DNA of 41,420 nt from a virus, in the IMG/VR virus record IMGVR_UViG_3300023184_000249, positions 1 through 41,420 of that record; one strand, 5' to 3'. Positions 1-41,420 of the stretch are shown piece after piece. The notes under the pieces are model-generated. The model was not told the origin of the DNA and did no database searches. It saw nothing but the letters and a program-made list of their open reading frames with translations. The position numbers and the translations under genes are program-made. Positions within the stretch are counted from its first letter, which is position 1. Every line of letters begins with the position of its first letter.

Positions 1-492
1 GCTTAACTGCCCGCCATCTACATATAAATTTTGACTGTCAAACAGTGTGTACGGCTCGCTCACACGCAGTCGACCAAATGCATCAAGATTGGTTCCTGTT
101 ATGGCAACGTTTGCATTGCCTCCGGTGATGGTGGCATTTACATTGCCGTCTATTGTGATTGATCCGCCGCCATCCACCACAGTTACGTTTGATGTAACAC
201 TTGATACTACCACTGTACCCGACACTACAGCATTGGTATTGCCTGTTACTACCCAAGGATCAGTGCCTTGGAACACAGTGACATTGCCTGAATCTATAGT
301 CACAGGCAAGGTATTGCCTGATATGTCTACATTTCCCAAACTACCAATGCCCACGTTGCCTACTGTGACATTGCCAATGAGCGCCGCGTTGGTTCGAACA
401 AATACTTGGCCTGTAATTGTGTTTAATTCTAACGCTTGATTAATATTCCGTAGATACCACGGTGCTACTTCGGTTGGTTCTGGGTATGACAT
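1..492 (-). CDS. Virion structural protein, 3' end cut by the window edge
   Basis: This frame starts at an ATG at 492 and stays open to the window edge, giving 164 codons with no stop. The start overlaps the stop of the preceding gene as TAATG. After an N-terminus beginning MSYPEPTEVAPWYLRNI the protein is a run of beta-type, Gly/Asn/Val-rich segments (GNVTVGNVGIG, SGNTLPVTID). It then shows FGRLRVSEPYTLFDS near residue 145, a box that recurs in virion structural proteins of T4-like aquatic phages. I infer a structural, possibly fibre- or spike-type, component. The C-terminal part is not visible, so its exact role cannot be named. It is the last visible gene of a minus-strand train. Confidence 0.75.
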   Translation of the reverse strand, partial: MSYPEPTEVAPWYLRNINQALELNTITGQVFVRTNAALIGNVTVGNVGIGSLGNVDISGNTLPVTIDSGNVTVFQGTDPWVVTGNTNAVVSGTVVVSSVTSNVTVVDGGGSITIDGNVNATITGGNANVAITGTNLDAFGRLRVSEPYTLFDSQNLYVDGGQLS

Positions 493-875
493 TATCGTGG
501 ATATCCTTTGAATGATTTAACTGGACTTTGAATACCAGTATCCTGAGGTTCTGAACTTTCGGGTGTGCTGACTAACTTTTTGTTGGGTGGTTTTCCAATC
601 ATTTCCAAGCCACGATCTATCACCTGTGACACTGTGTCATTGAAACCCACTACCACAGCATCATTGCTGAAAGCGGTACTGGTAGCCCACTCTTGGTCAA
701 ACACTGCTGTTGGATCTTGTTCGGCTCGTGCTCGAGCAAATGCCACACCCAAGCGATACACCTGATAAGGATCACTTGATTTGACATCCGGAAGTATATA
801 GGTATACTTCATTGGATCTGCGTAAAACGGATTTAACTCGGACTGACTTTCAACTATGAATTCTCTGGCTCTCAT
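492..875 (-). CDS. MRAREF-family small protein 1 (putative capsid-targeted internal protein)
   Basis: This protein has 127 aa. The start at 875 is chosen because it begins with the family box MRAREF and overlaps the previous stop as ATGA; a longer upstream frame would run into the neighbouring gene. The N-terminus MRAREFIVE followed by S fits a prohead-protease propeptide (cut after I-x-E), like MKTYQEFIAE of the T4 internal proteins. The middle has the YQVYRLGVAFA segment typical of this family. The C-terminus is SPVKSFKGYPR, shared with the three paralogues upstream. Function is unknown. Packaging inside the head and ejection with the DNA is inferred from the leader only. Confidence 0.75.
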   Translation of the reverse strand: MRAREFIVESQSELNPFYADPMKYTYILPDVKSSDPYQVYRLGVAFARARAEQDPTAVFDQEWATSTAFSNDAVVVGFNDTVSQVIDRGLEMIGKPPNKKLVSTPESSEPQDTGIQSPVKSFKGYPR

Positions 876-1243
876 CTGGGATACCCCCGGAATCCTTCTA
901 TGGGGCTTTTGGCATTGCCACCTGGTGGTTCTTGACTTCTTAGATCGCCATGATTTAGATCTTGCCACTCTGCGCCCACTGCCCGATAGGCCTGCTTCAA
1001 CATGTTTTGTTCTTGTTGAGTGTAAGGATGTGCTGTTTTTCTTTTGCCGTACCAACTTTTGGCATCAAGATCCAGTGGTTCATTTGTGCCATTGGCCATG
1101 GCAGTGGCCATCATGAGCCTGTATGATGTATAGTCCCCACTGATATGCTCGCCATCACCAAACGTGTGCAGTCCCACTGTGGGATAGCGAAAATCATCGC
1201 TGATGCTGCCGTTGTGTTCTTTAAGAAATTCTCTGGCTCTCAT
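872..1243 (-). CDS. MRAREF-family small protein 2 (putative capsid-targeted internal protein)
   Basis: This protein has 123 aa. Its start overlaps the stop of the upstream paralogue as ATGA, and its own stop overlaps the next start in the same way. The N-terminus MRAREFLKE followed by H matches the [L/I]-x-E cleavage pattern of T4-type prohead proteases. The middle contains DYTSYRLMMATAMA and PYTQQEQNMLKQAYRAVGA, which aligns with the YT..E....A.K.VGA stretch of paralogue 3. The C-terminus is SPIEGFRGYPR. No enzymatic motif is visible. It is probably translated by coupling with its neighbours. Confidence 0.75.
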   Translation of the reverse strand: MRAREFLKEHNGSISDDFRYPTVGLHTFGDGEHISGDYTSYRLMMATAMANGTNEPLDLDAKSWYGKRKTAHPYTQQEQNMLKQAYRAVGAEWQDLNHGDLRSQEPPGGNAKSPIEGFRGYPR

Positions 1244-1638
1244 CTGGGATATCCTTTGAAGCCAGTTACTGGACTTGTTTTTTGCACATAGTCTGCTTCT
1301 CGACTGCGATTGTCTGTGAGTTTGTTGACTCTTCCAGCCCCCACACTCTTGGCAGCGGCGTTGATGATGTCCATTTCAACGTCGGTGTAAGTTGCCAACA
1401 GTGGATCGCCAGCAAATGCGCCAGCAGGGTCTGTGGGGAAATCTGGTGCTCCTGCCATGGCTAGACTAAAACGCCATTGTGTATAGGGGCTGCCACCTTG
1501 TTTGGTCATTGATATATCAGGCATGCTGATGGCACCTTTGATGGCACTAGCATGGCTTTTGGGCAATTTCTTTGCGTCAGCAGGCACATCTTGGGCTGAT
1601 CCAAATCTTGCTTCTGATACAAATTCTCTTGCTCTCAT
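1240..1638 (-). CDS. MRAREF-family small protein 3 (putative capsid-targeted internal protein)
   Basis: This protein has 132 aa. The start overlaps the stop of the Ntn-hydrolase gene as ATGA. The N-terminus MRAREFVSE followed by A is the same leader type, although V rather than L/I stands at P3. The middle shows PYTQWRFSLAMAGAP and TYTDVEMDIINAAAKSVGA, then SREADYV. The C-terminus is SPVTGFKGYPR. Paralogue 4 shares the SREpDYV..TSPV..F.GY.R tail, so both ends are conserved while the middle is more variable. Function is unknown. Confidence 0.75.
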   Translation of the reverse strand: MRAREFVSEARFGSAQDVPADAKKLPKSHASAIKGAISMPDISMTKQGGSPYTQWRFSLAMAGAPDFPTDPAGAFAGDPLLATYTDVEMDIINAAAKSVGAGRVNKLTDNRSREADYVQKTSPVTGFKGYPR

Positions 1639-2513
1639 TTTACATCTCGCATTCTCATGTGTCCAAACGGTGGGTCACCACGGGTGTTTTGCCACAGTGC
1701 CCGATTGCTCATGATTTCCACCCATACATCAGTGTTGGGTTGATTCAATCCCCAGAAATCAAATTGCAAATGACTACTGATCGGCCGGCAATACAGTGTG
1801 TTTTCTGCAGGTACACACAACTGCTGACTGGTAGTACGCATTTTTTTCTGCTCTGTGCTGGTGCGCATTATATTTAGTTGCGGATCCTTCAAGTACACTT
1901 GACACATTCCATCCACTAGATCTTCTGGTTCTTCAGCAGTGGCCACCACTGCTTCAGCCAGAGCCAGACGGCTTTCACTTGAAATTCTACTCAGGGTATT
2001 GCTTCGATTGTTGGGTTCACGTTGATAACCTGTGTCTGGCATCCAGATGCCATGATTGGTTCTGGCCACCATGTCCGAGCGTGGTATTTCTTTCACTACT
2101 GATTCAAAATCACGTTTGCCATCCCAGTCACTGGCTTCTATTAGATACAGGGTTTCTTGGTCAAACACAATGGTACAACCGCCTAGTTTTCCGTCTAATA
2201 GCACTTGAACAGCATCAGGCACTGTGTGTTGTAGTAGGGCCTTGGCAATCACTTGGCCATCAGGGCTGATTTCTGCTGTGCCGGCTTCCACTTCTGATTC
2301 GTCATCATACACATCCAAACTGGTGTTTAGGATACTGATACCATGATTGTTGATGCCTTCTTTGTAGCCAGTGATTTGATCATGCATCATCATGCGTTGC
2401 ACGTCGTGGCTGGTATCTTCAATAAAGTCCAAGACAGGAGTATAGTTGCGGTCGCGATTTTTTGCACCAGCCCAGCCAATGTCAGGGAAGTACTTGGCTA
2501 CGATCACGCACAT
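1635..2513 (-). CDS. N-terminal-nucleophile hydrolase (choloylglycine hydrolase / acyltransferase C45-like)
   Basis: This protein has 292 aa and begins Met-Cys, so removal of Met1 would expose Cys2 as the nucleophile, as in conjugated-bile-salt hydrolases, penicillin V acylase and NRDE-type proteins. Supporting motifs are AGAKNRDRNY (Asp21), NNHGISILNTSLDV near residue 57, ARTNHGIW near residue 152 (the Asn that helps form the oxyanion hole in this clan), and SRISSESR as a possible substrate-binding Arg. The family cleaves or transfers linear amide bonds; the substrate here is unknown. It has no capsid-targeting leader although its flanking genes do. The start at 2513 lies two bases after the preceding TAA, and the stop overlaps the next ATG. 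Confidence is high for the fold and low for the substrate. Confidence 0.7.
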   Translation of the reverse strand: MCVIVAKYFPDIGWAGAKNRDRNYTPVLDFIEDTSHDVQRMMMHDQITGYKEGINNHGISILNTSLDVYDDESEVEAGTAEISPDGQVIAKALLQHTVPDAVQVLLDGKLGGCTIVFDQETLYLIEASDWDGKRDFESVVKEIPRSDMVARTNHGIWMPDTGYQREPNNRSNTLSRISSESRLALAEAVVATAEEPEDLVDGMCQVYLKDPQLNIMRTSTEQKKMRTTSQQLCVPAENTLYCRPISSHLQFDFWGLNQPNTDVWVEIMSNRALWQNTRGDPPFGHMRMRDVK

Positions 2514-2515
2514 GA

Positions 2516-2902
2516 TTATCTCTTGTAGCCTTGGAACGACCTAACAGGACTGGTGTTGTTTACATAGTCAGGTTCACGACTGCCTTTGCTGATTGCGTCC
2601 TTGGGCTTCATGCCCAGTTTTTTCATAATTGCAGTGAGTTTTTTGCGATCGTGTTCGGTATAGGCACTGAAGATGGGCAGGTTTCCAAAGAAGTTGATGT
2701 CATCAGTTTTTTCCAGACGATCAAGATCCATGCCAGCAAGACTTGCTATGCGGTAGAAATCATAATATCGTCCAATATACAAGTCACCGTGATTGTCGGG
2801 ACTTACCATGCCAGGATGTGCGGTTTCGAATTCATGTGCGGCAGCGGCTCTAGTGCCGCCCCGTACTCCGTTGCCTTCTGTAATGAATTCGCGGGCTCTC
2901 AT
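2516..2902 (-). CDS. MRAREF-family small protein 4 (putative capsid-targeted internal protein)
   Basis: This protein has 128 aa. A GTG six codons upstream is also in frame, but the ATG at 2902 is preferred. It yields the family N-terminus MRAREFITE followed by G, and it sits one base after the upstream TAA. The middle has DLYIGRYYDFYRIASLAGMD and SAYTEHDRKKLTAIMKKLGM, then SREPDYV. The C-terminus is SPVRSFQGYKR, the most divergent of the four tails (K in place of P). No catalytic motif is visible. It is separated from the other three paralogues by the Ntn-hydrolase gene. Confidence 0.75.
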   Translation of the reverse strand: MRAREFITEGNGVRGGTRAAAAHEFETAHPGMVSPDNHGDLYIGRYYDFYRIASLAGMDLDRLEKTDDINFFGNLPIFSAYTEHDRKKLTAIMKKLGMKPKDAISKGSREPDYVNNTSPVRSFQGYKR

Positions 2903-2903
2903 T

Positions 2904-3227
2904 TTAGATGCCGTTGACACCTGCTGTGGCTGATGAGGCTGTGCCTAGTGCAGTGGCTGAGAAGCCAGAGCCTGTGATAATGTTTAGATAGTTGCCTGCA
3001 CCAACATAATATTGTGCTACTGAGTCACCAGGAACCACAATGGCATTGGCATACAAGTTGCCAGTGGGTGTGCTCATTGTGGCATTGGCCGGCACGCCAT
3101 TGGCCTGCACATAAGTCAGTTGCACTGCTGACACTTGAAATGTGACATTGGCAGTGGTTGTAGAAAATTCTACTTTATCTGTGGTCCACAGCACGTTACC
3201 TGTGGTGTTGACAACTTGAATAGCCAT
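2904..3227 (-). CDS. Small beta-rich protein, probably structural
   Basis: This protein has 107 aa with no Cys, few charges, and many Thr, Val, Ala and Gly residues (TTANVTFQVSAVQLTYVQ, AQYYVGAGNYLNIITGSGF). That composition suits a small beta-sandwich virion or decoration-type protein. The start overlaps the previous stop as TAATG, and the stop lies one base before the next ATG. It lacks the capsid-targeting leader seen in its neighbours. No family is recognised with confidence, so the structural role is inferred from composition and context. Confidence 0.6.
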   Translation of the reverse strand: MAIQVVNTTGNVLWTTDKVEFSTTTANVTFQVSAVQLTYVQANGVPANATMSTPTGNLYANAIVVPGDSVAQYYVGAGNYLNIITGSGFSATALGTASSATAGVNGI

Positions 3228-3406
3228 TATTTTGATTCCTTGGTTAAGTCTGCTACAGCCACTGGGTGATAGAGATTGACAGTTTGTGTGATCACGCCTG
3301 GTATCATTGCCGGCTGATTACGTACCTCTGCAGGTGTTGGTGCCGGTGGATGACGTTCTGCCAGACGAGCCATTGTTTGTGCATAGGTTTGATATTGTTC
3401 GGTCAT
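3227..3406 (-). CDS. Small hypothetical protein
   Basis: This frame encodes 59 aa from the ATG at 3406 (MTEQYQTYAQTMARLAERH), six bases after the upstream stop. An in-frame ATG at 3427 would add seven residues and overlap the upstream gene by 16 bases; neither start has a strong ribosome-binding site. The protein is helical at the N-terminus, then Pro-rich (PPAPTPAEVRNQP). MARLAE followed by R would fit the [L/I]-x-E cleavage pattern, but it is not a clear leader. Function is not recognised. The tight overlap on both sides supports it being real. Confidence 0.5.
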   Translation of the reverse strand: MTEQYQTYAQTMARLAERHPPAPTPAEVRNQPAMIPGVITQTVNLYHPVAVADLTKESK

Positions 3407-3411
3407 AGTGG

Positions 3412-3912
3412 TTACCACTTTCGACATGACCAGTAACGAGCCGAGGTACGAGGTCCAGGATTCTCACAATGGTGTCTTGCTCTAAAACTCTTGCGACGAG
3501 CAGGGTTGGATTTCTTAATACGCATGGTCTTTTGTCCAGCACGTTTTGCTGAAGTGCCACCGTGACCAAAGTTAACTTTTTTAATGTTGCCTGTTTTGGG
3601 ATCTTTCACAAACACTTTGAATTTTTTTACATCCCCTCGCATGGGCTTGCCTAGCGGCACATTATGACCATGATACTTGGCTTCGTCCATGTCTTCATCT
3701 TCGGTGAGATTGTGATCAATCAAGTCCCAAGATTCCAATAATGAATAAATGTCTTCAGTGCTGTCCAACAGGATATCACCCACGTCATCTTGATCCATGA
3801 CATAGGTTTCAAGCAAGGTGCCATCTTCCAGTTCAAAGGCAAACACATCACCAGTTCTTGGGCGATGTTGTTCCACTTCGGCTTCTGTCAAGTAATCAAG
3901 TAGCGTTTTCAT
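3412..3912 (-). CDS. Conserved phage protein with capsid-targeting-like leader and RARHxC...WSC tail
   Basis: This protein has 166 aa. The start at 3912 gives MKTLLDYLTE followed by A, very close in length and pattern to the T4 internal-protein leader MKTYQEFIAE, with L-T-E at the cleavage position. An acidic middle (residues about 15-80) is followed by a basic C-terminal domain: PLGKPMRGDVKKFKVFVKD, then NPARRKSFRARHHCENPG and ARYWSCRKW. I have seen this basic box in many T4-like aquatic phage proteins, but no function is assigned. Two Cys and a His could bind metal. Cleavage and head location are inferred from the leader. Confidence 0.7.
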   Translation of the reverse strand: MKTLLDYLTEAEVEQHRPRTGDVFAFELEDGTLLETYVMDQDDVGDILLDSTEDIYSLLESWDLIDHNLTEDEDMDEAKYHGHNVPLGKPMRGDVKKFKVFVKDPKTGNIKKVNFGHGGTSAKRAGQKTMRIKKSNPARRKSFRARHHCENPGPRTSARYWSCRKW

Positions 3913-3913
3913 A

Positions 3914-6190
3914 TTAGATCTTGAAGTTAGCAAACTCTGCCATCAGGCTTTCTTCCATTTTTTTATCTTCTGGCTTTTTGCCTGTGGCAGGAACACCTGT
4001 TTTCTTTTGCAAGTCTCGGATCATTTCTTCGTCTGAACCATGACCCAGTTTCTCAAGGCCTTTTTTCACAATGTCTTTGACTGTGTCAACAACACCTTCT
4101 TCGACTGCTTCTTCTTCCTTCATAGTGCGTTCCCAAGGCTTTAGTTTGCTTTGGTCAATGCCGGCCATTTCAATCATGCGAGCCAGTTCAGCGTCTTCTT
4201 CTTTGACCTGTACTGCTGTGACAGGTACTGTGGTTTGACCATCACCGGCTATGGTAGTCTTGGGCTTGTTCAGGCCACCTGAGTATTGCAAGGCATCGTC
4301 ACTGTATTCAGTGTCAGTTGGCCAGTCAGGCTTGTTCTCTGTGGCAGTGACATCACCGTAGGCTTCTTCCACTGCTTCGTCGCAACCGCAATCAACTGAA
4401 CCGCAGTCTGGGCAAGGCTCTTGATGACCGTGTCCACCACCTGTCAACCCTGCACGTGCCAACAATTGTGCCAACATTTCTGCATCCTCGTCGGCTGCTG
4501 TCACAGTGATGTTCTTGTGTGAACCGTTGTCATCGTTGGTCATTGATACATTGATGCTCATTGATTCAGCAATCATGTTTTCAACTTCACGATTCATGCT
4601 GTCGTAGATGCCTTTGCCAATTTGCAGGCCGCCTTTGCTCTTTTTAGGAGCATCGCCGCCGGTGGCAACTGAACCACTAGTAGTAGTTTCATCTACTTTC
4701 TTTTCTTTACGATCTTTTTTGTCATCATACTCGATGTCTTTGGTCACTCGTTTACCGGCTTTTTCTGCGCGGTTGTCGTCTTTGCCTTTGTGGCCTTCAT
4801 CGTACTCGATGTCTTTGGCCACTTTGCGACCTGCACGTTCAGCACGTTGATCTTCTTTGTCTGTGGACTCTTCTTCCACTTTACCAGCATTGTGTGCTTT
4901 CCAGGCCGCACCGTAGGCTTTGCGCTTTTCAACATCTGTCAATTTGCCATCCTTGGCGTAACCAGCCTTGATATGCTTGACCATGCGTTCGGCCTTGGCG
5001 CCAGGGGGTGCCTTTTCGTCAATCTCTTGATCGTCACCTTGTTGATTCTGCATGTAGTCATCCACAGCAGTCATCATGCCTTCAATCTTGGCCAACTTGG
5101 CTTGTACCCATTCTGGCAAGTTGTCGTTGTCGCCTAGGATCTTTTCCAGGGCTTGAGCATGACGCACAATGGTCTTGATGTCATCTTTGGCCATGGCACC
5201 TTCACGATCGTATTCACCTGAATCATGTGGTTCAATCATGAACTCCATGTCGCCTTCTTTCACGCGGCCACCTTTGTGCTTGTAGGCCTTGGCAGTCACA
5301 CGCTCTGGGCCTTTTGGTGCGCCTTTTGGACGACCGGCTTTACGCTTTTCACCAGTGGGTTGTTCATCTGTTTCATCATCATAACGACGTGTGGCACGCA
5401 CACCAGTGGCAGTAGTTTCAATATCATGACGTGCGCCACGACGGACATCACCTACCTTGGGACCCATGCGCTTTTTAACGTCACGTTCCATTTCGTCCCA
5501 GCCTTCGTCGGCCATTTGTTTTCTGCCACTCAATGCATTCTTCATGGCTTCAGCAGCCACATCGCCTAACATTTCGTCAACTTCTTTTTTGGCGCCGGCA
5601 ATTTTGTCAGCAAAAGTGATTTTGTCTTTGGGAGGTGCCAAGGCAGCAAATGATTTTTGCTTGGCAGTCATTGGCATACCGCCTTCTTCTTTGACAGGAT
5701 ATGTTTTGCCATCTACACTAAACGTATCTCGGTGTTGTGCTTTGGCCTTGGCCAATTCACCTGAGAACTCGTTGCCTTCTTCCATATCGGCCTCGTCCAT
5801 CTTGTTATAGCGATTGCGAATCTGGTTCATTTTTTCTTTACCGGCATGCTCACGGCCTGCTTGTTGCAATGCCTTCATGCCTTCTTTGCCGTACTTCTTG
5901 TCGCCAAGATAAGCCTGTAATGCACTTTCTTCAACATCTTCTTTAGCATGACGCAGTTTTGCCAACACAGCGCCAGCAACTTTTTCGCCACGCTCTTTGG
6001 AACCATAACGCTCACCTGCTGACTTGGCAATTTGTGCAAATTGCTTGCCTGGCTTGCCAATGTCTTTGCCGGCACGTGCCTTTGTAGCAGAGTAATCACC
6101 TGTGGCACGTTCAGCAACTGCACCTTCTGAGAGAGTTTGTTTTTGGCTTAATTCAGCCATGCGTTTGTTTAAGTCGTAAAAAAATGTCAT
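3914..6190 (-). CDS. Large charged internal-head-type protein with AT-hook and Cys cluster
   Basis: This protein has 758 aa. The ATG at 6190 is chosen because AGAGGAT lies ten bases upstream and it follows the previous stop by four bases; a longer frame would intrude into the upstream gene. It is Lys/Glu/Asp-rich and largely low-complexity. Features are QTLSE followed by G near residue 22 (an L-x-E cleavage pattern), an AT-hook-like KRKAGRPKGAPKG near residue 285, a duplicated acidic/basic segment (VAKDIEYDEGHKGKDDNRAE and VTKDIEYDDKKD), a Cys cluster CPDCGSVDCGC near residue 595, and SLMAE near the C-terminus. I infer a DNA-associated core or internal protein of the head. No enzyme motif is seen. 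Confidence 0.65.
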   Translation of the reverse strand: MTFFYDLNKRMAELSQKQTLSEGAVAERATGDYSATKARAGKDIGKPGKQFAQIAKSAGERYGSKERGEKVAGAVLAKLRHAKEDVEESALQAYLGDKKYGKEGMKALQQAGREHAGKEKMNQIRNRYNKMDEADMEEGNEFSGELAKAKAQHRDTFSVDGKTYPVKEEGGMPMTAKQKSFAALAPPKDKITFADKIAGAKKEVDEMLGDVAAEAMKNALSGRKQMADEGWDEMERDVKKRMGPKVGDVRRGARHDIETTATGVRATRRYDDETDEQPTGEKRKAGRPKGAPKGPERVTAKAYKHKGGRVKEGDMEFMIEPHDSGEYDREGAMAKDDIKTIVRHAQALEKILGDNDNLPEWVQAKLAKIEGMMTAVDDYMQNQQGDDQEIDEKAPPGAKAERMVKHIKAGYAKDGKLTDVEKRKAYGAAWKAHNAGKVEEESTDKEDQRAERAGRKVAKDIEYDEGHKGKDDNRAEKAGKRVTKDIEYDDKKDRKEKKVDETTTSGSVATGGDAPKKSKGGLQIGKGIYDSMNREVENMIAESMSINVSMTNDDNGSHKNITVTAADEDAEMLAQLLARAGLTGGGHGHQEPCPDCGSVDCGCDEAVEEAYGDVTATENKPDWPTDTEYSDDALQYSGGLNKPKTTIAGDGQTTVPVTAVQVKEEDAELARMIEMAGIDQSKLKPWERTMKEEEAVEEGVVDTVKDIVKKGLEKLGHGSDEEMIRDLQKKTGVPATGKKPEDKKMEESLMAEFANFKI

Positions 6191-6194
6191 GTTA

Positions 6195-6803
6195 TTATCC
6201 TCTTGGGTGTGAGCCTGTTGCTGGCTTTGGTGGACGCTTGATGTTGGCAAAAGGACTGGTATCCTGTTGTGCTATATCATTTGTGGTTTTTGCAGGAGGT
6301 GTCTTGCCTCCAGCCACTGTAAAGTCTGAACGATACTCGTTCTTTAATACTGCATGTTGATATGGATTGGCCGAGTAGTCTTGGCTCAAGGCCTTTTGTT
6401 CTGCATCAGGTGCAGGATAATCTGTGTCAGCAATCAAGTCCGTGTTCTGTGCTGTGATGTCTGCAATCTCTTTGGCAATGCTGTCATCATAGGCCGCTGT
6501 TTGCAGTGTAATGCGGTTGGGGTTGAAACCCAACAACTGTGCCAACTGCTTGATCTGTGGCTCAATAGCAGGGTATCTAAAACTCACATCCATGAAAGTC
6601 ATGCTTTCATTTTCTGCGCCCGGAAAGTCTTTCAGCAACTTTTGCACAGGTGTGGTTTTTGGGCGACTCATTTTGACAATGTCAAACTGCGCCATTTTTT
6701 CTTCGAGATTTTTTACAAAATCAGGTGGCACTTCACCTAGGATTTTGATCCTATAGTCATATGTGCGCTCAGATTCTGCTAGATATTGATGAAATGTTTT
6801 CAT
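6195..6803 (-). CDS. Conserved T4-like phage protein with capsid-targeting-like leader
   Basis: This protein has 202 aa. It begins MKTFHQYLAE followed by S, the closest match in the window to the T4 internal-protein leader (M-K-T-aromatic-x-x-aromatic-I/L-A-E). After the leader comes TYDYRIKILGEVPPDFV and a compact alpha/beta region (residues about 10-100), then a Pro/Thr-rich tail ending in GSHPRG. It resembles a conserved protein of aquatic T4-like phages whose function I do not know. A late promoter lies just upstream, with AGGACC as a weak ribosome-binding site. It heads the cassette of leader-bearing genes running to 492. Confidence 0.7.
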   Translation of the reverse strand: MKTFHQYLAESERTYDYRIKILGEVPPDFVKNLEEKMAQFDIVKMSRPKTTPVQKLLKDFPGAENESMTFMDVSFRYPAIEPQIKQLAQLLGFNPNRITLQTAAYDDSIAKEIADITAQNTDLIADTDYPAPDAEQKALSQDYSANPYQHAVLKNEYRSDFTVAGGKTPPAKTTNDIAQQDTSPFANIKRPPKPATGSHPRG

Positions 6804-22622: not shown

Positions 22623-22630
22623 TATTTATG
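22623..22630 (-). promoter_or_regulatory. T4-type late promoter (CATAAATA) for the 349-aa fibre gene
   Basis: The minus strand reads CATAAATA, 18 bases before the ATG at 22604 and overlapping the 3' end of the 1386-aa fibre gene. Confidence 0.65.
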
Positions 22631-25600
22631 GTGCGTAAACATACAAGGTTGAACTATCGGGCACCGTGATATTGTAACTATTTGCAAGAGTGACAGGCCC
22701 TAGCAACAGTGCATTTACAGCATCTGCTACGGCCACATTGGCACTCAACGTTTTGGGCCCTGCAAATGTGCCATACATGGTCAAACTGCCCAGATTCACA
22801 ACCACAGTATTTGACGCACCTGCAACATTGAAAGTGATGTTGCCCGAGGCTTGGGGTATGGAAATAGTTGTGGCCCCATTGGCAATTTGGCTGGCAGCAC
22901 CCACATTTAGTCCGGTCAAGAAGGCGCCATTACCAATATAGTAATTGCCTGTGATATTGCCGGTGGCCGAAACCTGCCCTACTGTTGTGAGATTACCGCC
23001 GATCACATTGGCTGTAGCACTAACCAACCCTCCTGTAAGCAAGTTACCACCTGTTACATTGCCGGTGGCAGTGACAAGGCCTGCTGTGAGAATATTGCCA
23101 CCTGTTACGTTGCCTGTCACGGTGGCCAAACCTGCTGTGCGTAGATTGCCTGCATCCACGTTGCCTGATGCTGATATTAGACCGGTGACCAATACTCCTG
23201 TTGAAGTAACATTGGCTATGGCAGTGTTGGCAGCCCATAACAATTGATAACCATTCTGTGCGGCACTGCCTCTTACGTATTGAGTAAAACTGTCCCACCC
23301 GGTACCCACATAGTTGAGACCAAATCTTGCCACTTCAGTTCCTGTAGCATTACTGGCTACGCCATTTTGTGAGGTCAGTCTAAAGTTGACATCAGATCCT
23401 GATGTGAGTCTGGCTGTAACTGCATTGGCTGTGGTACTTGTGGCAAACAGGGCTGATCCCTGTAGATTACCACCTGTGATATTGCCAGTGGCTGATATCA
23501 AGCCTGCTGTTAATAAATTGCCCCCAGTTATGTTGCCTGTCACATTGTCTGAACCACTGATGGAGATATTACCACCGGTGATGTTTCCTGTAACAGTCAA
23601 GAGCCCACTTGTCAACAAGTTGCCGCCTGTAACATTACCTGTTGATGTGATCAAACCAGCAGTGGTTAGATTACCACCAACAACGTTGGCTGCACTAGTG
23701 ATGGTTGATGTTGCTGAAATCAATCCGCCAGTTAGTAAGTTGCCACCTGTCACGTTTGCCGTTACACTCACAACCGCACCCAAATGACTCAATCCAGTTA
23801 TAGTTCCAGTGGCTGATATCAAGCCAGCGGTTAGTAAATTACCACTAACTACATTAGAAGTCACACTCAGTATACCAGTGGGAATATTGGTTTGTCCAGT
23901 ACCATTGACATTAAGGTTAATATTGCCATTGGCCAATGTGTTGATCCATAAGGTACCTGTGTCAACAATATTGCCAGTTAAGGAGTGATCTCCACCTGTG
24001 GTAATTGACCCTGCGGCCGAAATCAATCCAGCAGTCAGTAAATTACCACCTGTGATGTTGGCTGTCACACTTACTACTGAACCCAAGTGACTTGATCCAG
24101 TAACAGTGCCTGTGGCACTGATCAAACCACCTGTCAAGATATTGCCACCTGTGATGTTGGCTGCTGAGGTAATTGTTGAGGTTGCTGATACAAGGCCACC
24201 AGTTAGTATGTTACCACCGGTGATGTTGCCAGTTGATGTGATCAAACCAGCAGTGTTAATATTTCCACCAATCACATTGGCAGCACTAGTGATTGTGCTA
24301 GTGGCTGATATCAAACCTGCTGTGAGAACGTTGCCACCTGTGATATTGGCTGTTGCACTCACTTGACCTGCTGTGGTCAAGTTACCGCCTATAACGTTGG
24401 CAGCACTAGTGATTGTGCTAGTGGCTGATATCAAACCTGCTGTGAGAACGTTGCCACCTGTGATATTGGCCGCACTTGTGATTGTTGATGTGGCTGAGAT
24501 CAAGCCTGCAGTTCTCAAGTTTCCAGCATCAACGTTGCCAGTTACATTCAAACTTGTGCCAGTTGCGACACCAATGTTGGGTGTGGTTAAATTGGCCGAC
24601 GCTTTAACAATTATGTTGCCACCAGCATCAAACGCAGTGGTAGTTCCGTCTGTTTTGGCATTGATTACTGTGCCTGCTAGGCTGATACCTGCTGAAGTAT
24701 TTGCTGTATATGTTTGGCTGGTGCTAAAAGTAGCAAAAGTTATATTGCTTGTGCCAAATGTGATTGTTCCTGAAGGTGCATTGACCACAAAAGCCGCACC
24801 AGCATTGACATTGCCATTTGTGACAAAGAAATAGTCGTTGATGCTAAATTGTTCTGTGCTGTTGGCACCATACTCATCAGTGTCAGTTGAACGCACAATA
24901 TTAGTGGCATTGGCCCAGGTGTAAACACCATTGAATACTGCGTTGCCTTCGTTCTTGACCAAGATACGTGTGCCCACACTTTGCACGTTGCCTGTATCAA
25001 TTAGGTTAAATGTGCCTGTAGTGGTCAACTTGGCACCAATACCATTGGCCACGCCATTGGGTTGGGTATAACTTATAGTACCACCTGTAGTATTGGCCAT
25101 GGTATCTGTACTGGCCACATATACAGACTGATGATAAGTGATGCCTGTTGTGGCCACTGTGTCCACATACAGTTTGGTTGCCGCGTCGCCATCTTGTGCT
25201 GGACTTGCTAAGTTGTTGATGTAGGTATTGGCACTCAGAACAACGTTACCGGCTGGGTTCAAGTTGATAGCACCTGATGCAGTGCTCAAGGTTAACGCAC
25301 CCGAAGTGGGTCTCACAGTGCTAGTATTAACATTACCTGCAATCACATTGCCAGTAGCACTTATCAAACCGCCAGTTAAAAGGTTACCACCAGTTATGTT
25401 GGCTGCCGAGGTGATTGTTGATGTGGCCGAAATCAAACCGCCAGTTAAAAGGTTACCACCAGTTATGTTGGCTGTAACACTCACAATACTGCCTGTATGG
25501 CTTGCCACATTCACTATGTTGGTGAACATGCCATTATTGGCAGTGACGTTACCAGTAACTGATACAATACTGCCAGTGAAACTGGCTGTGTTGACTATGT

Positions 25601-26786
25601 TGGTGAACATGCCATTATTGGCAGTGACGTTACCAGTAACTGATACAATACTGCCAGTGAAACTGGCTGTGTTGACTATGTTGGTGAACATGCCATTATT
25701 GGCAGTGACGTTGGCAGTGACAGATACTAAACCACCTGTGAGGATGTTGCCACCTGTAATGTTGGCTGTCACACTTACTACTGCGCCTAAATGGCTCGTA
25801 CCAGTCACTGTACTTGCGGCACTGATCAAACCACCTGTGAGTACATTACCGCCTGTGATGTTGGCTGCTGAGGTGATAGTCGACGTGGCCGATACCAATC
25901 CACCAGTTAATATATTGCCACCTGTAATATTGGCAGCACTGGTAATAGTAGATGTTGCACTGATCAATCCAGCAGTTAGCAAGTTGCCACCTGTGATGTT
26001 ACCAGTGGCAGTCACAACGCTACCTATAAGTGTTGATCCAGTTACTGTACCTGTTGCCGAAACAAGTCCATTAGTTAATATATTGCCACCTGTAATATTG
26101 GCAGCACTTGTAATTGCACTTGTTGCAGATATTAAGCCACCGGTGAGTACATTACCGCCGGTGATGTTGGCAGTTACTGAAACAACTGAACCCAAATGAC
26201 TTGAGCCGGTTATGGTACCAGTTGAACTAATCAAGCCACTTGTTAAGAGGTTGCCGCCAGTTACATTGCCTGCGGCGCTGACTATACCACCTGTATCGAC
26301 ATTGCCTGCTGACAAGTTTCCTGTAGTGGCAGTGCCCAGTGTAGTGGCTCCTGTGACACTGAGTGTGCCAGTAACACTTACCAATCCTGCTGTGAGAATG
26401 TTGCCGCCAGTGATGTTGCCTGACGCTGATACTACACCTGTAACATATTCACCTGTGGTAGCAAATACTGCTACATTACCTGTGCCGCCAACACCAACTG
26501 TGACATTGCCACCTGAACTACCAACAGTGACATTACTGGTGCCATTAGAGATGTTGCCAGGATTTAGGGTAATTCCGGTCAGTTGTGACCCGTTACCAAT
26601 AAAGTAATTGCCTGTTATGATGTTGCCAACCGCCGAGATATAGCCGTTGGATGCCAAAGTATTGGCTGTGATGATGTTGGCCGTGGACAATATACGTGTC
26701 CACGTGTTGCCCACGTTGGAAAACTGATATGTTATGTTGTTAACAACAGCAGTTTGGCCGTTCGTCGGCGATACTGGAAAGGCCAT
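22626..26786 (-). CDS. Giant repetitive tail-fibre-like protein (1386 aa)
   Basis: The N-terminus FPVSPTNGQTAVVNNITYQF is shared with the 1916-aa fibre and probably attaches it to the virion or partner. Then come many repeats with the core NITGGN-(I/L/V)-LT-(A/G)-GL-(I/V)-SAT, in units of 17, 23, 27 and 33 residues. A globular block (about residues 480-750) begins QDGDAATKLYVDTVATTG and includes GTRILVKNEGNAVFNGVYTW and EQFSINDYFFVTNGNVNAGA. More repeats follow. The C-terminus is a different domain ending KTLSANVAVADAVNALLLG then NSYNITVPDSSTLYVYAP. AAAGGAT precedes the ATG, and the stop of the upstream fibre is ten bases away. It is probably receptor-binding; no polysaccharide-cleaving motif is seen. 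Confidence 0.8.
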   Translation of the reverse strand: MAFPVSPTNGQTAVVNNITYQFSNVGNTWTRILSTANIITANTLASNGYISAVGNIITGNYFIGNGSQLTGITLNPGNISNGTSNVTVGSSGGNVTVGVGGTGNVAVFATTGEYVTGVVSASGNITGGNILTAGLVSVTGTLSVTGATTLGTATTGNLSAGNVDTGGIVSAAGNVTGGNLLTSGLISSTGTITGSSHLGSVVSVTANITGGNVLTGGLISATSAITSAANITGGNILTNGLVSATGTVTGSTLIGSVVTATGNITGGNLLTAGLISATSTITSAANITGGNILTGGLVSATSTITSAANITGGNVLTGGLISAASTVTGTSHLGAVVSVTANITGGNILTGGLVSVTANVTANNGMFTNIVNTASFTGSIVSVTGNVTANNGMFTNIVNTASFTGSIVSVTGNVTANNGMFTNIVNVASHTGSIVSVTANITGGNLLTGGLISATSTITSAANITGGNLLTGGLISATGNVIAGNVNTSTVRPTSGALTLSTASGAINLNPAGNVVLSANTYINNLASPAQDGDAATKLYVDTVATTGITYHQSVYVASTDTMANTTGGTISYTQPNGVANGIGAKLTTTGTFNLIDTGNVQSVGTRILVKNEGNAVFNGVYTWANATNIVRSTDTDEYGANSTEQFSINDYFFVTNGNVNAGAAFVVNAPSGTITFGTSNITFATFSTSQTYTANTSAGISLAGTVINAKTDGTTTAFDAGGNIIVKASANLTTPNIGVATGTSLNVTGNVDAGNLRTAGLISATSTITSAANITGGNVLTAGLISATSTITSAANVIGGNLTTAGQVSATANITGGNVLTAGLISATSTITSAANVIGGNINTAGLITSTGNITGGNILTGGLVSATSTITSAANITGGNILTGGLISATGTVTGSSHLGSVVSVTANITGGNLLTAGLISAAGSITTGGDHSLTGNIVDTGTLWINTLANGNINLNVNGTGQTNIPTGILSVTSNVVSGNLLTAGLISATGTITGLSHLGAVVSVTANVTGGNLLTGGLISATSTITSAANVVGGNLTTAGLITSTGNVTGGNLLTSGLLTVTGNITGGNISISGSDNVTGNITGGNLLTAGLISATGNITGGNLQGSALFATSTTANAVTARLTSGSDVNFRLTSQNGVASNATGTEVARFGLNYVGTGWDSFTQYVRGSAAQNGYQLLWAANTAIANVTSTGVLVTGLISASGNVDAGNLRTAGLATVTGNVTGGNILTAGLVTATGNVTGGNLLTGGLVSATANVIGGNLTTVGQVSATGNITGNYYIGNGAFLTGLNVGAASQIANGATTISIPQASGNITFNVAGASNTVVVNLGSLTMYGTFAGPKTLSANVAVADAVNALLLGPVTLANSYNITVPDSSTLYVYAP
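24277..24470 (-). repeat. Two identical 74-bp repeats, 120 bp apart, in the 1386-aa fibre gene
   Basis: Bases 24277-24350 and 24397-24470 are identical. Both encode the same fibre unit (AANITGGNVLTAGLISATST). Identity at silent positions points to recent duplication or gene conversion and not to protein selection alone. Confidence 0.85.
25513..25710 (-). repeat. 81-bp tandem repeat in the 1386-aa fibre gene
   Basis: Copies begin at 25513, 25594 and 25675 with an exact period of 81 bp; the third is partial. Each encodes a 27-residue unit of the type NVTANNGMFTNIVNTASFTG. A diverged copy precedes them. The near-perfect identity suggests recent expansion. Confidence 0.85.
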
Positions 26787-26796
26787 TCTCTATCCT

Positions 26797-32547: not shown

Positions 32548-32566
32548 TCTGGCTCCTGCTATGTGT

Positions 32567-32574
32567 TATTTATG
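32567..32574 (-). promoter_or_regulatory. T4-type late promoter (CATAAATA) for the 1916-aa fibre gene
   Basis: The minus strand reads CATAAATA, 19 bases upstream of the ATG at 32547, with AGGAGC between them. It lies just past the stop of the 110-aa gene. Confidence 0.7.
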
Positions 32575-32583
32575 CCAAAAAGA

Positions 32584-32916
32584 CTAAATTCTTTTCAGCC
32601 ACTCTTCGCGAGTCATTTGTGGTGGTGGGTATTTGACCTTGATTGACCGTATTTTTTCCGCCATAGCAGGCGGAAAAACACCTGCATGATATAATGCATC
32701 CAACTGATCTTCAATACTAGGATACTCTCTAGCACGATTTCTACGATATTCATTGAGATCGTCTTCGTATTGCAAACGCTGTTGTTCTGCTAGAATTTGA
32801 TCTTCTGTTATGGGCGCAGTTGGCGGGTTGATCCAGGTCACTTCACCATTGCCCACAGCAATAGATACTTGTGCCCCAGGCACTAGATTTTGTATGGCTT
32901 GCATTTTGCTGATCAT
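32584..32916 (-). CDS. Small tail-fibre-associated protein (XkdW / fibre-assembly-like)
   Basis: This protein has 110 aa. It starts with an ATGA overlap with the 1063-aa fibre gene, and GGAGA lies upstream. The C-terminal half is helical and contains YRRNRAREYPSIEDQLDALY followed by AEKIRSIKVKYPPP. This Y-P-S-I-x-D-Q-L-D-A-L box is common in small proteins encoded beside phage tail fibres (XkdW-type). I infer an assembly or chaperone role for the fibres on either side; there is no direct evidence for it. Confidence 0.6.
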   Translation of the reverse strand: MISKMQAIQNLVPGAQVSIAVGNGEVTWINPPTAPITEDQILAEQQRLQYEDDLNEYRRNRAREYPSIEDQLDALYHAGVFPPAMAEKIRSIKVKYPPPQMTREEWLKRI

Positions 32917-37720: not shown

Positions 37721-37755
37721 ATGACACAGTTTATTTTGCTGGGCACAGTGGGTTA

Positions 37756-37763
37756 CTTAAATA
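37756..37763 (+). promoter_or_regulatory. Late-type promoter (CTTAAATA), five bases before the start codon
   Basis: CTTAAATA ends at 37763 and the ATG is at 37769, the same spacing as at 13606/13612. The predicted first transcribed base is the A of the ATG. No ribosome-binding site is visible. Confidence 0.5.
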
Positions 37764-37768
37764 TCTTC

Positions 37769-39115: not shown

Positions 39116-40327
39116 TTAGGAGAACGACAAATTGCTGACGGCAATTTCTCCCACATAATCTCCGGCATTGCCGAAACTTGATGCGGTATTAGTGAGTTCG
39201 ATAAACCCGTAACGTGTCATAAATGATACGACTGGTTCAAAGGTTGTTGGATCCAACACAACACCGCTTGACATCAATGGGATGTATGGGCAGTAGAATG
39301 CTGGAGCGTCTGCTTCGCTTGAACCCTTGTAACCAACCAACACAGGAGTTGTGTCACTTGCATAAGAGTCAACAAACACACGCATAGCGCCGTTCAATGT
39401 ACCAACAAACTTGGTGTTTGTAGGTGCTTCGAATGTACCTTCTGTAGTACGTGCAAAAGCACTAGTGGTTGCAGATTGCAACACTGTCAAACTTGCAGAT
39501 GAAACAACAGCATAGTTACCTGCGCCACGACGTGTACGTTGGGCGATCAAGTTAGCAACACGGTTGATCAAAACTGCCAATGCGGCATGTTCGTCACCAA
39601 CGAATGTAGCAGTACCTGAAACGGTTGCTTGGTTGTATGTGTACTCAGTTGCGGCCAAACTGCGGAGACTCAAAAGAATCTCTTGGTCAATTTCAGCAGT
39701 GATCTCTTGAGCCAAAGCAGCCATGATTTCGGCTTCTACGTCGATACCATGCATTGCTTGTGCGTCTTGAGCGGCTTCAAATGTCCAACGTGCTTGCAAC
39801 TTGCGAGTCTTGGCTTCAACAGCCTGCTTCAAGATTTGCACGCTAATTTGACGACCACCACTACCTTCTAACACAGATGTATTGGCACCAGTGTAGATGT
39901 TTTGTGTTGGGTCAACAGTACCTGCTGTCACACTTGATGCTGAAGAATATGCTTGAGCAATCAAGAATGGGCTCAACGCTTCTTGGCCAGCGGCAGTGCT
40001 GGTAGCGGCTGCTGAGTTGTCAGTCATGGTGTTGGCATAACGCACACGCAGTGTGTGGATCTGACCAACTGGGCCTGTCATGGGCTGAACGCCTACCAAC
40101 TCGTTAGCGATAACTGTTGGCATCACACGACGGATAACTGGCAAAATCACACGGTTCAGCGTTGCAATGTTGCCACTGCCTGTTGAACCAGAACTTGCGT
40201 TTTCCTTCAAGTACTTGCGAGTGTTTTCTAAGATAACACTCATTGAGTTGCGCTTGGAACCGTTCAAACCTTCAAGCAATGCTTCTTTGGTCTCGCCCCA
40301 GCGACTTTCTAATAGTTGTTCTGACAT
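39116..40327 (-). CDS. gp23: Major capsid protein (gp23-like)
   Basis: This protein has 403 aa, shorter than T4 gp23 (521 aa). The N-terminal region (MSEQLLESRWGETKEALLEG) leads to VILENTRKYLKE followed by N, where L-K-E near residue 42 is a likely prohead-protease cut. Then NRVILPVIRRVMPTVIANEL, VGVQPMTGPVGQIHTLRVRY and later ARWTFEAAQDAQAMHGIDVE with EITAEIDQEILLSLRSLAA are typical of T4-like capsid proteins. The C-terminal domain has PAFYCPYIPLMSSGVVLDP and TRYGFIELT. It forms the head shell. AAGGAG precedes the ATG, and the gene follows gp22 by 24 bases, so both share a transcript. Confidence 0.95.
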   Translation of the reverse strand: MSEQLLESRWGETKEALLEGLNGSKRNSMSVILENTRKYLKENASSGSTGSGNIATLNRVILPVIRRVMPTVIANELVGVQPMTGPVGQIHTLRVRYANTMTDNSAAATSTAAGQEALSPFLIAQAYSSASSVTAGTVDPTQNIYTGANTSVLEGSGGRQISVQILKQAVEAKTRKLQARWTFEAAQDAQAMHGIDVEAEIMAALAQEITAEIDQEILLSLRSLAATEYTYNQATVSGTATFVGDEHAALAVLINRVANLIAQRTRRGAGNYAVVSSASLTVLQSATTSAFARTTEGTFEAPTNTKFVGTLNGAMRVFVDSYASDTTPVLVGYKGSSEADAPAFYCPYIPLMSSGVVLDPTTFEPVVSFMTRYGFIELTNTASSFGNAGDYVGEIAVSNLSFS

Positions 40328-40351: not shown

Positions 40352-41420
40352 TTAGAGGCCTGCCAGGCGCTTGATAGCAATAACGTTGCTGTTGTCAGCA
40401 TCGTTATCTTCTCTAGGGCTTTGGACAGTTTTATCACCAGTCACTTCCGACACACTTTCAACAATCACTTTGCGGCTATTTGTTGATCTGCCTTCGGCCA
40501 GCACTGCTGGTAGATACTTTTCGAATGCGTTTTTCAAACGTGCTGTTTGTACGCTTTCAAGTAAATTACGCATGGTTTCACGCTTCTCTTCATTGAGAGG
40601 TGCGAGCAATTCTTCCATGGTGTTTTGACGCACATTGGATTCCTTGATAATACGTATTTCACGTTCTTTGGACTCAACCAGAGTTTTTGCTCTCTGTGTG
40701 AGTTGGATGGCTTCACTCAATTGATGATCTTTGTGTGCAATCATGTTTTGCAGTTTACGAACTTCGGCTTTCTCATTGAGATGAGTAGCACCAAATTCGG
40801 CTGCGTATGCTTCAAAGATTCTACGACCAAAGTTGTTCTCGCGAGCAACTCGGATGTCTTCATGCAATTGTGTGAGTTCCGCCTTGAGGTGACGGCTAAC
40901 AGCCTGGCTCATCTTTTCAGCACTTTCCTTGACGAAACGTGCTTTGAGACCTTCCAGTTGACCACGTGCTTCACGCACCAAACGAACCTTGGTTTCCACC
41001 ACGTCACGCTTGTCTTGTGAGAATTCTTGAATTTCACGGGCCAGGGCATGCACCACAAAGTTTTCTAGTTTGGCTAGTCCTTCTGTGTGCATCTTGCGAT
41101 CTTTGCGCAGTTCGCCGATTTCTTCTGCCAATTTTGTGACCATGAAGTTGTTAAACTTAGTAGCATCTTCTTTGATCTTGGTTTGGAACTTCACGCGGTC
41201 TTCAGCCAGCGCCTGCTTTTCAGCAGCCACGGCTTGTACTTCTGCGGTAAGACCTTCTGTTACCATTCGGTCTAAGGCTTCCACCATCACTGACTTGTCA
41301 TGTTCATAGCGTTGCGCAAATTCCTCGCGGAGTTCTGCGCGAACCTGTTCACGTGCTTCAGTAAGTTTGGCATCCCAAGCCTCACTGATAGCACTGCGAG
41401 TTTCCTCGTTGATCAGTTCG
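40352..41420 (-). CDS. gp22: Prohead core scaffolding protein (gp22-like), 5' end outside the window
   Basis: The frame is open to the window edge; the visible part starts at 41419 (INEETRSAISEAWDAKL) and has 355 residues. It is almost entirely helical and highly charged: AREQVRAELREEFAQRYEHD, then VQAVAAEKQALAEDRVKFQT, a long coiled-coil region and MEELLAPLNEEKRETMRNLL. VLAE followed by G and VIVE followed by S near the C-terminus fit the [L/I]-x-E or related cut sites by which T4 gp22 is degraded in the maturing head. It builds the inner core around which gp23 assembles. The prohead protease gene is expected beyond the window. Confidence 0.9.
   Translation of the reverse strand, partial: ELINEETRSAISEAWDAKLTEAREQVRAELREEFAQRYEHDKSVMVEALDRMVTEGLTAEVQAVAAEKQALAEDRVKFQTKIKEDATKFNNFMVTKLAEEIGELRKDRKMHTEGLAKLENFVVHALAREIQEFSQDKRDVVETKVRLVREARGQLEGLKARFVKESAEKMSQAVSRHLKAELTQLHEDIRVARENNFGRRIFEAYAAEFGATHLNEKAEVRKLQNMIAHKDHQLSEAIQLTQRAKTLVESKEREIRIIKESNVRQNTMEELLAPLNEEKRETMRNLLESVQTARLKNAFEKYLPAVLAEGRSTNSRKVIVESVSEVTGDKTVQSPREDNDADNSNVIAIKRLAGL

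What the first reader, a model, noticed from the sequence alone, without database searches (positions are those of the whole stretch)
492..6803. Cassette of seven proteins with capsid-targeting, protease-cleavable leaders
Seven products in this minus-strand train start with closely similar short leaders: MKTFHQYLAE, MKTLLDYLTE, MRAREFIVE, MRAREFLKE, MRAREFVSE, MRAREFITE, and a longer one reaching QTLSE in the 758-aa protein. T4 internal proteins carry the leader MKTYQEFIAE, which targets them into the prohead and is removed by gp21 after [L/I]-x-E. The match in length, charge, aromatic position and final E suggests that this phage packs a set of proteins in its head and injects them with its DNA. 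Such ejected cargo in T4 counters host restriction, so these could be uncharacterised anti-host effectors. The leaders are seen directly; cleavage and ejection are inferred.
Basis: partly seen in the sequence, partly recalled or inferred. Interest (0 to 1): 0.8.

Follow-up and report, generated by a model that had tools for sequence, protein, structure and literature searches.

The report
Head-packaging address tags on phage cargo
Seven neighbouring proteins of an uncultured giant T4-like phage begin with a short tag that very probably sends them into the growing virus head and is then cut off, and the same kind of tag sits on many unrelated enzymes in related phages, so virus-delivered proteins could be picked out from sequence alone.

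Summary
The leaders are real. Six of seven are near-textbook (4x MRAREF[I/L/V]xE, MKTFHQYLAE, MKTLLDYLTE); the 758-aa one is weaker. Such N-termini occur far above shuffled expectation in related genomes. In 95 MRAREF-family homologues not selected by leader, identity is 94-100% at positions 2, 3, 5, 6 and 9 and drops to about 10% right after E9; rare exceptions keep an [I/L]xE nearby. The tag sits on about 30 clusters of unrelated bodies (ADP-ribosyltransferase, DUF6267, nucleotidase), and DUF6267 occurs with different tags or none. Relatives encode a gp21 protease, and the window's gp23 has a matching site. Independent test with a fixed pattern: cyanophage S-CREM2 has four tagged proteins among 206, all four in its published virion proteome (0/154 undetected, p=0.0037). 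The same test is not significant in S-SCSM1 or PA5oct, and the distant PA5oct orthologue of the 202-aa protein is in virions but lacks the cleavage Glu. Packaging is well supported; cleavage and injection are inferred; anti-host action of the window's own proteins is untested. A new variant of T4's capsid-targeting system, with an abundant orphan cargo family.

The parts
6195..6803 (-). 202-aa protein; leader MKTFHQYLAE (nt 6774-6803), predicted cut E10|S11; C-terminal tail SPFANIKRPPKPATG
   Evidence: M1, K2, F4, Y7, E10 and S11 invariant in the 17 aligned relatives; PA5oct orthologue is MS-positive in the virion but reads MKSFRDYYDAS (no Glu); helix 4-11 precedes the first strand (residue 15) and has lower confidence than the domain
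3914..6190 (-). 758-aa protein; long leader MTFFYDLNKRMAELSQKQTLSE (nt 6125-6190), predicted cut after E22
   Evidence: QTL[STA]E or NLAE kept in relatives despite insertions before it (RTQTLTE, QQNLAE); weakest of the seven
3412..3912 (-). 166-aa protein; leader MKTLLDYLTE (nt 3883-3912), predicted cut E10|A11; phrog_7595 domain
   Evidence: orthologues MKTLRDYLAE, MKTLKDYLVE, MKTLKDYLTE
2516..2902 (-). MRAREF-family protein, leader MRAREFITE (nt 2876-2902), tail SPVRSFQGYKR
1240..1638 (-). MRAREF-family protein, leader MRAREFVSE (nt 1612-1638), tail SPVTGFKGYPR
872..1243 (-). MRAREF-family protein, leader MRAREFLKE (nt 1217-1243), tail SPIEGFRGYPR
   Evidence: AF2 model: first ten residues are the least confident (pLDDT 54), body has helices 37-49 and 76-89; no PDB match
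492..875 (-). MRAREF-family protein, leader MRAREFIVE (nt 849-875), tail SPVKSFKGYPR
39116..40327 (-). gp23-type major capsid protein; predicted maturation site KYLKE42|N43 (nt 40202-40213 for YLKE), the same kind of site as the leaders
   Evidence: Pfam Gp23 2e-97; alignment with relatives and T4 gp23, all aligned relatives have LxE there
40352..41420 (-). gp22-like scaffold protein, cut by the window end; gp21 protease lies just upstream in the relatives examined and falls outside the window
   Evidence: gp21 of relative G006 = Peptidase_S77 3.9e-24
1635..2513 (-). 292-aa protein without leader inside the train, N-terminal MCVIVAKY, weak similarity to AAT-type Ntn hydrolases
   Evidence: PF03417 E=0.0087, below cut-off; no PDB sequence match
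2904..3227 (-). 107-aa protein without leader inside the train
3227..3427 (-). 66-aa protein without leader inside the train

Best explanation
The leaders are prohead-targeting propeptides of the T4 internal-protein type. During head assembly each leader, probably as a short helix, binds the scaffold core and recruits its protein into the prohead. The phage's gp21-type protease then cuts after the Glu of [I/L/V]xE, as it cuts the major capsid protein, and frees the mature protein inside the head, to be delivered with the DNA. Shown here: the leaders, their conservation ending at the Glu, their modular use on unrelated bodies, gp21 in relatives, the matching gp23 site, and, for related leaders in a cultured phage, presence in virions. 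Inferred: targeting, cleavage and delivery in this phage. What the MRAREF bodies do in the host is unknown.
For: Enrichment over shuffles. Among 95 MRAREF-family homologues recognised by body only and not used to choose the locus, pairwise identity at positions 2, 3, 5, 6, 9 is 1.00, 0.98, 0.98, 0.98, 0.94 and falls to 0.09 at position 10. Exceptions keep the motif elsewhere: MRAREFVIQE|S and MRAREFVSAKITE|T; the 758-aa leader keeps LxE despite insertions. 110 tagged proteins fall into 30 body clusters, including ART-PolyVal 4.7e-14, DUF6267 1.1e-32, NT5C 4.4e-7, GNAT 5e-4. DUF6267 carries MRAQEFLFE, MKFTQFLAE, MLTLINFSKYITE, MYNDLLVE or no leader in different phages. Portal-protease-scaffold-capsid operon in relatives and Peptidase_S77. 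gp23 site KYLKE|N in the window; S-CREM2 GLLTE|A and S-SCSM1 SFLAE|A near the corresponding place in their gp23. Virion proteomics: S-CREM2 4/52 virion vs 0/154 undetected with the pattern fixed, p=0.0037; the four are SAM hydrolase, APH-like kinase, cytidylyltransferase and a 78-aa protein (PMC10665884). S-SCSM1 NMNAT MKSFLQFLKE is annotated as virion protein. PA5oct orthologue of the 202-aa protein is MS-positive. T4 facts: first 10 residues of IPIII suffice, processing depends on residues 8 and 10, foreign cargo is delivered (PMC9026906).
Against: The pattern is not enriched among virion proteins of PA5oct (2/93 vs 2/153) and not significantly in S-SCSM1 (1/48 vs 2/225); pooling all three gives p=0.010 and the two cyanophages p=0.005, resting on few proteins. 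Orthologues of the 202-aa protein in PA5oct and Phosso lack the Glu. MRAREF leaders lack an aromatic residue at position 4. Val at P3 is common (25/95) although T4 sites favour Leu/Ile. The S-CREM2 authors note that abundant infection proteins could co-purify with virions. No MS data exist for any phage with the MRAREF family, which gave no match in the 50,697 phage records.
Confidence: 0.78

Rival explanations
1. The leaders are integral N-terminal helices of ordinary structural or scaffold-associated proteins and are never removed; their likeness to T4 leaders reflects binding to the same core only.
For: In PA5oct and Phosso the 202-aa orthologue keeps the helix but not the Glu, and PA5oct's is in the virion. 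The leader aligns without gaps into these orthologues.
Against: E9 is kept in 92 of the 95 unbiased MRAREF homologues with a recognisable leader while the next residues are free; lost sites are regained nearby; the leader is the least ordered part of the AF2 model; one body family (DUF6267) exists with different leaders or none.
Confidence: 0.13
2. The tag is a recognition peptide for another late-infection partner (a chaperone, a replication or transcription complex, a membrane), not for the head.
For: Some tagged genes in cyanophages lie next to replication genes; part of the tagged set are metabolic enzymes.
Against: Site and spacing match T4 capsid-targeting sequences and the phages' own gp23 sites; all four tagged S-CREM2 proteins are virion proteins; the window train directly follows neck, sheath and tube genes.
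Confidence: 0.06
3. Chance or paralogy: the four MRAREF leaders are alike only because the genes are duplicates, and the others match by coincidence.
For: The four MRAREF proteins are true paralogues.
Against: Leader conservation far exceeds that of the bodies and ends sharply after E9; shuffles give 0.00-0.025 per genome against 1-6 seen; the same leader occurs on about 30 clusters of bodies.
Confidence: 0.03

Closest known systems
T4 internal proteins IPI, IPII, IPIII and their capsid-targeting sequence (MKTYQEFIAE)
   Same: Short leader with a basic start, ending in aromatic-[I/L]-x-E; one leader shared by unrelated bodies; gp21-type protease encoded in the lineage; multicopy variable cassette
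   Different: The MRAREF version is one residue shorter with no aromatic at position 4; bodies unrelated in sequence; two of the four MRAREF bodies are acidic to neutral rather than basic; conserved C-terminal tail that I know of in no T4 IP
T4 Alt (virion-packaged, injected ADP-ribosyltransferase)
   Same: A relative of the window phage carries an ART-PolyVal domain behind the MRAREFIAE leader, matching the Alt logic of a tagged, injected ART
   Different: Small stand-alone ART domain of the polyvalent-protein type; not found in the window itself
Polyvalent proteins (Iyer et al. 2017, PMC5512222)
   Same: Overlapping domain set in relatives: ART-PolyVal, a weak Kinase-PolyVal hit, and an 826-aa multidomain protein
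   Different: The passages read here do not describe a common N-terminal packaging tag for them
Virion enzymes of T4-like cyanophages (S-CREM2, S-SCSM1; PMC10665884, PMC9602691)
   Same: SAM hydrolase, APH-like kinase, cytidylyltransferase/NMNAT found by MS and, as shown here, carrying the same kind of leader
   Different: Leader is MKxFxxFLxE rather than MRAxEF[I/L/V]xE; those papers left open whether and how the enzymes get into virions
phiKZ/SPN3US head proteins with propeptides cut after Glu
   Same: Ejected head proteins processed by a gp21-related protease
   Different: Different phage lineage; according to PMC9026906 their propeptides carry several cleavage sites

Membership tests
T4-type capsid-targeting sequence / internal head protein | N-terminal leader of about 10 residues ending in [I/L]-x-E | tested here: met
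   Three of the four MRAREF leaders, MKTFHQYLAE and MKTLLDYLTE meet it; MRAREFVSE has Val at P3; the 758-aa leader is 22 residues
T4-type capsid-targeting sequence / internal head protein | Residues important for targeting in IPIII (positions 4 and 7) present | tested here: inconclusive
   F4/Y7 and L4/Y7 in the two 10-residue leaders; MRAREF leaders keep the aromatic before P3 but have no aromatic at position 4
T4-type capsid-targeting sequence / internal head protein | Leader conserved while attached bodies are unrelated | tested here: met
   110 tagged proteins in 30 body clusters; DUF6267 with several leaders or none
T4-type capsid-targeting sequence / internal head protein | gp21-type prohead protease encoded by the phage | tested here: met
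   Met in relatives (Peptidase_S77 3.9e-24); the window itself ends inside gp22
T4-type capsid-targeting sequence / internal head protein | Same site type in the phage's own gp23 | tested here: met
   KYLKE|N in the window gp23 and LxE in aligned relatives; the cut itself is inferred by homology
T4-type capsid-targeting sequence / internal head protein | Protein present in the virion | tested here: inconclusive
   No MS data for this phage; related leaders: S-CREM2 4 of 4, S-SCSM1 1 of 3 and PA5oct 2 of 4 pattern matches are virion proteins
T4-type capsid-targeting sequence / internal head protein | Leader removed by the protease during maturation | not testable with these tools
   Needs N-terminal peptides from virions
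T4-type capsid-targeting sequence / internal head protein | Injected into the host and active there | not testable with these tools
   Needs a delivery assay
Polyvalent / ART effector proteins | Recognisable ART or other effector domain in the window proteins | tested here: not met
   No Pfam domain above cut-off in the seven; present only in relatives

The most novel reading that the evidence does not exclude
T4-like jumbo phages and cyanophages share a general, modular address-tag system that loads a large and changing set of enzymes (ADP-ribosyltransferases, kinases, SAM hydrolase, cytidylyltransferase, acetyltransferase, and a very abundant orphan family with a second, C-terminal tag) into their heads for delivery to the host, so that the injected proteome of uncultured phages can be read from N-termini.
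Probability: 0.5. Interest if true: 0.82.

Novelty: new variant of a known kind. Interest (0 to 1): 0.64.

Why it matters
How cyanophage and jumbo-phage enzymes come to be in virions was left open in the papers that reported them. A nine- or ten-residue tag that predicts packaging would turn that question into a sequence search and a simple fusion experiment. It also flags an orphan protein family, with at least 357 relatives in viral contigs but no match in cultured phage records, as probable head cargo, and suggests where to look for counter-defence and take-over proteins in uncultured phages.

Tried and rejected
Enrichment of the leader among PA5oct virion proteins: none. The same test in S-SCSM1: direction right but not significant, one enzyme. 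Looser patterns in S-CREM2 lose most specificity. Fold search of the MRAREF model: no PDB match, pTM only 0.52. Model of the 202-aa protein: low confidence, pTM 0.47. Search for the MRAREF family in cultured phages: none. Superoxide dismutase and nucleotidase proteins in relative G004 (MRDIITLLEE, MRIRELLEE) were considered as tagged cargo, but their leaders fit less well, so the argument does not rest on them. Counting the 292-aa protein as an eighth cargo protein was rejected: it has no leader. A literature search for a description of such leaders in jumbo phages or cyanophages found none, but the held library covers only open-licence papers. Supplementary tables (Atu_ph07 and S-SM1 proteomes) could not be read.

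Full report
What the window is. The window is a 41.4-kb virus record from a T4-like jumbo myovirus lineage. Its major capsid protein is of the Gp23 family, 60-65% identical to those of PA5oct, Vibrio phage 2.275.O and Rak2-like phages, and 81-100% identical to many uncultured contigs. The finding lies directly after neck, sheath, tube and head-closure genes on the same strand.

The observation. The seven N-termini are as described. Four belong to paralogues (MRAREFITE, MRAREFVSE, MRAREFLKE, MRAREFIVE) that share not only the leader but also a C-terminal tail SP[V/I]xxF[K/R/Q]GY[P/K]R. Three genes of the train have no leader. A fixed N-terminal pattern is found 3-8 times per related genome where shuffled N-termini give 0.2-0.9, and a tighter one 1-6 times against at most 0.025.

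Conservation stops at the Glu. Using an HMM built from the bodies without the first 12 residues, 201 non-redundant family members were found in the fetched loci and genomes. Of these, 95 show the leader, and 92 have Glu at position 9. Pairwise identity at positions 2, 3, 5, 6 and 9 is 0.94-1.00, at positions 4 and 8 below 0.2, and from position 10 on about 0.1-0.3. Members that lost Glu 9 can keep an [I/L]xE close by: MRAREFVIQE and MRAREFVSAKITE. The 758-aa protein keeps QTLxE or NLAE in relatives in spite of insertions before it, and the 166-aa protein reads MKTL[R/K]DYL[A/V/T]E. This is what a protease site, rather than a fixed structural element, should look like.

The leader is modular. 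Of 110 tagged proteins collected, 60 belong to the MRAREF family and the rest to 29 other body clusters, some of which may be distant relatives of each other or chance matches. Recognisable bodies include ART-PolyVal (4.7e-14), DUF6267 (1.1e-32), NT5C (4.4e-7) and an acetyltransferase. DUF6267 proteins carry MRAQEFLFE in an uncultured phage, MKFTQFLAE in Stenotrophomonas phage DLP6, MLTLINFSKYITE in phage Melnitz, MYNDLLVE in HTVC008M, and nothing in several cyanophages.

The machinery. Relatives encode the order portal - small core proteins - protease - scaffold - capsid protein. The protease is Peptidase_S77, the T4 gp21 family (3.9e-24). The window stops inside the scaffold gene. The window's capsid protein has KYLKE|N in its N-terminal region at the place where a gp23 propeptide is expected to end, and the leader ends YLTE, YLAE and FLKE match it.

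Test on published virion proteomes. With the pattern fixed, cyanophage S-CREM2 has exactly four matching proteins among 206 of 50 aa or more, all four detected in virions (PMC10665884 Table 3): SAM hydrolase, APH-like kinase, cytidylyltransferase and a 78-aa protein. None of the 154 undetected proteins match (p=0.0037 for all virion proteins, 0.00035 when only the 26 non-structural or unassigned virion proteins are compared with the undetected ones). In S-SCSM1 the only matching virion protein is the NMNAT enzyme, with two short non-virion open frames also matching (p=0.44). In PA5oct there is no enrichment (2/93 vs 2/153). Pooled over the three phages p=0.010, over the two cyanophages 0.005. 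So the pattern works well in one phage, agrees in a second, and says nothing in the third, where no MRAREF-type leader was seen. The PA5oct orthologue of the 202-aa protein is nevertheless MS-positive, without the Glu.

Mechanism. The T4 precedent is strong: ten N-terminal residues of IPIII are enough to bring foreign proteins into the head, processing depends on residues 8 and 10, and packaged proteins are delivered to the host (PMC9026906, PMC3012670). The most likely reading is that the window proteins are recruited into the prohead core by their leaders, trimmed by gp21, and delivered with the DNA. Shown: anatomy, conservation, modularity, presence of the machinery in relatives, virion presence of related tagged proteins. 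Inferred: targeting, cutting and delivery in this phage. Unknown: what the mature bodies do.

What differs from T4. The MRAREF leader is one residue shorter and lacks the position-4 aromatic residue. The family carries a conserved C-terminal tail, with an alternative ending KKN[K/R]YG[V/I] in a minority. A related tail ends the 202-aa protein, and a scan of about 1,600 genes of the window and seven related genomes found this tail pattern only in those two families (the pattern was drawn from them, so this is descriptive). It could be a second signal.

Noticed in passing
window 1635-2513 (-): 292-aa protein starting MCVIVAKY, weakly like AAT-type Ntn hydrolases (PF03417 E=0.0087), without a leader inside the leader train; an N-terminal nucleophile would not tolerate an uncut leader.
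   Followed up: partly
window 492-2902 and 6195-6803 (-), C-termini: Conserved C-terminal tails SPxxF[K/R/Q]GY[P/K]R and SPxxxIKRPPKPATG shared by two leader families; minority members elsewhere end in KKNKYG[V/I]. Possibly a second targeting or processing signal.
   Followed up: partly
L203 10175-10201 start (-), and L388, L389, L385: DUF6267 proteins carry different leaders or none in different T4-like phages; in S-SCSM1 a block of neighbouring genes (89-93, with the NMNAT) is annotated as virion proteins.
   Followed up: partly
L391 7704-10313 (-), S-CREM2 gp12: Cas9-like virion protein with an extended N-terminus ...PLRFASFMAE|AAVD that looks like a longer leader.
   Followed up: no
L102 507-4060 (record G004 120507-124060, -): Neighbouring genes for a kinase-like protein (MRATEFITE), an iron superoxide dismutase (MRDIITLLEE) and a 5'-nucleotidase (MRIRELLEE); only the first has a good leader.
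   Followed up: partly
window 22626-36104 (-): Very long repetitive proteins rich in GNITGGN-type repeats (1386, 1916 and 1063 aa), probably tail fibres.
   Followed up: no
window 37721-38926 (+): 401-aa protein with tetratricopeptide-like and glycosyltransferase-like sequence features on the opposite strand next to the capsid gene.
   Followed up: no
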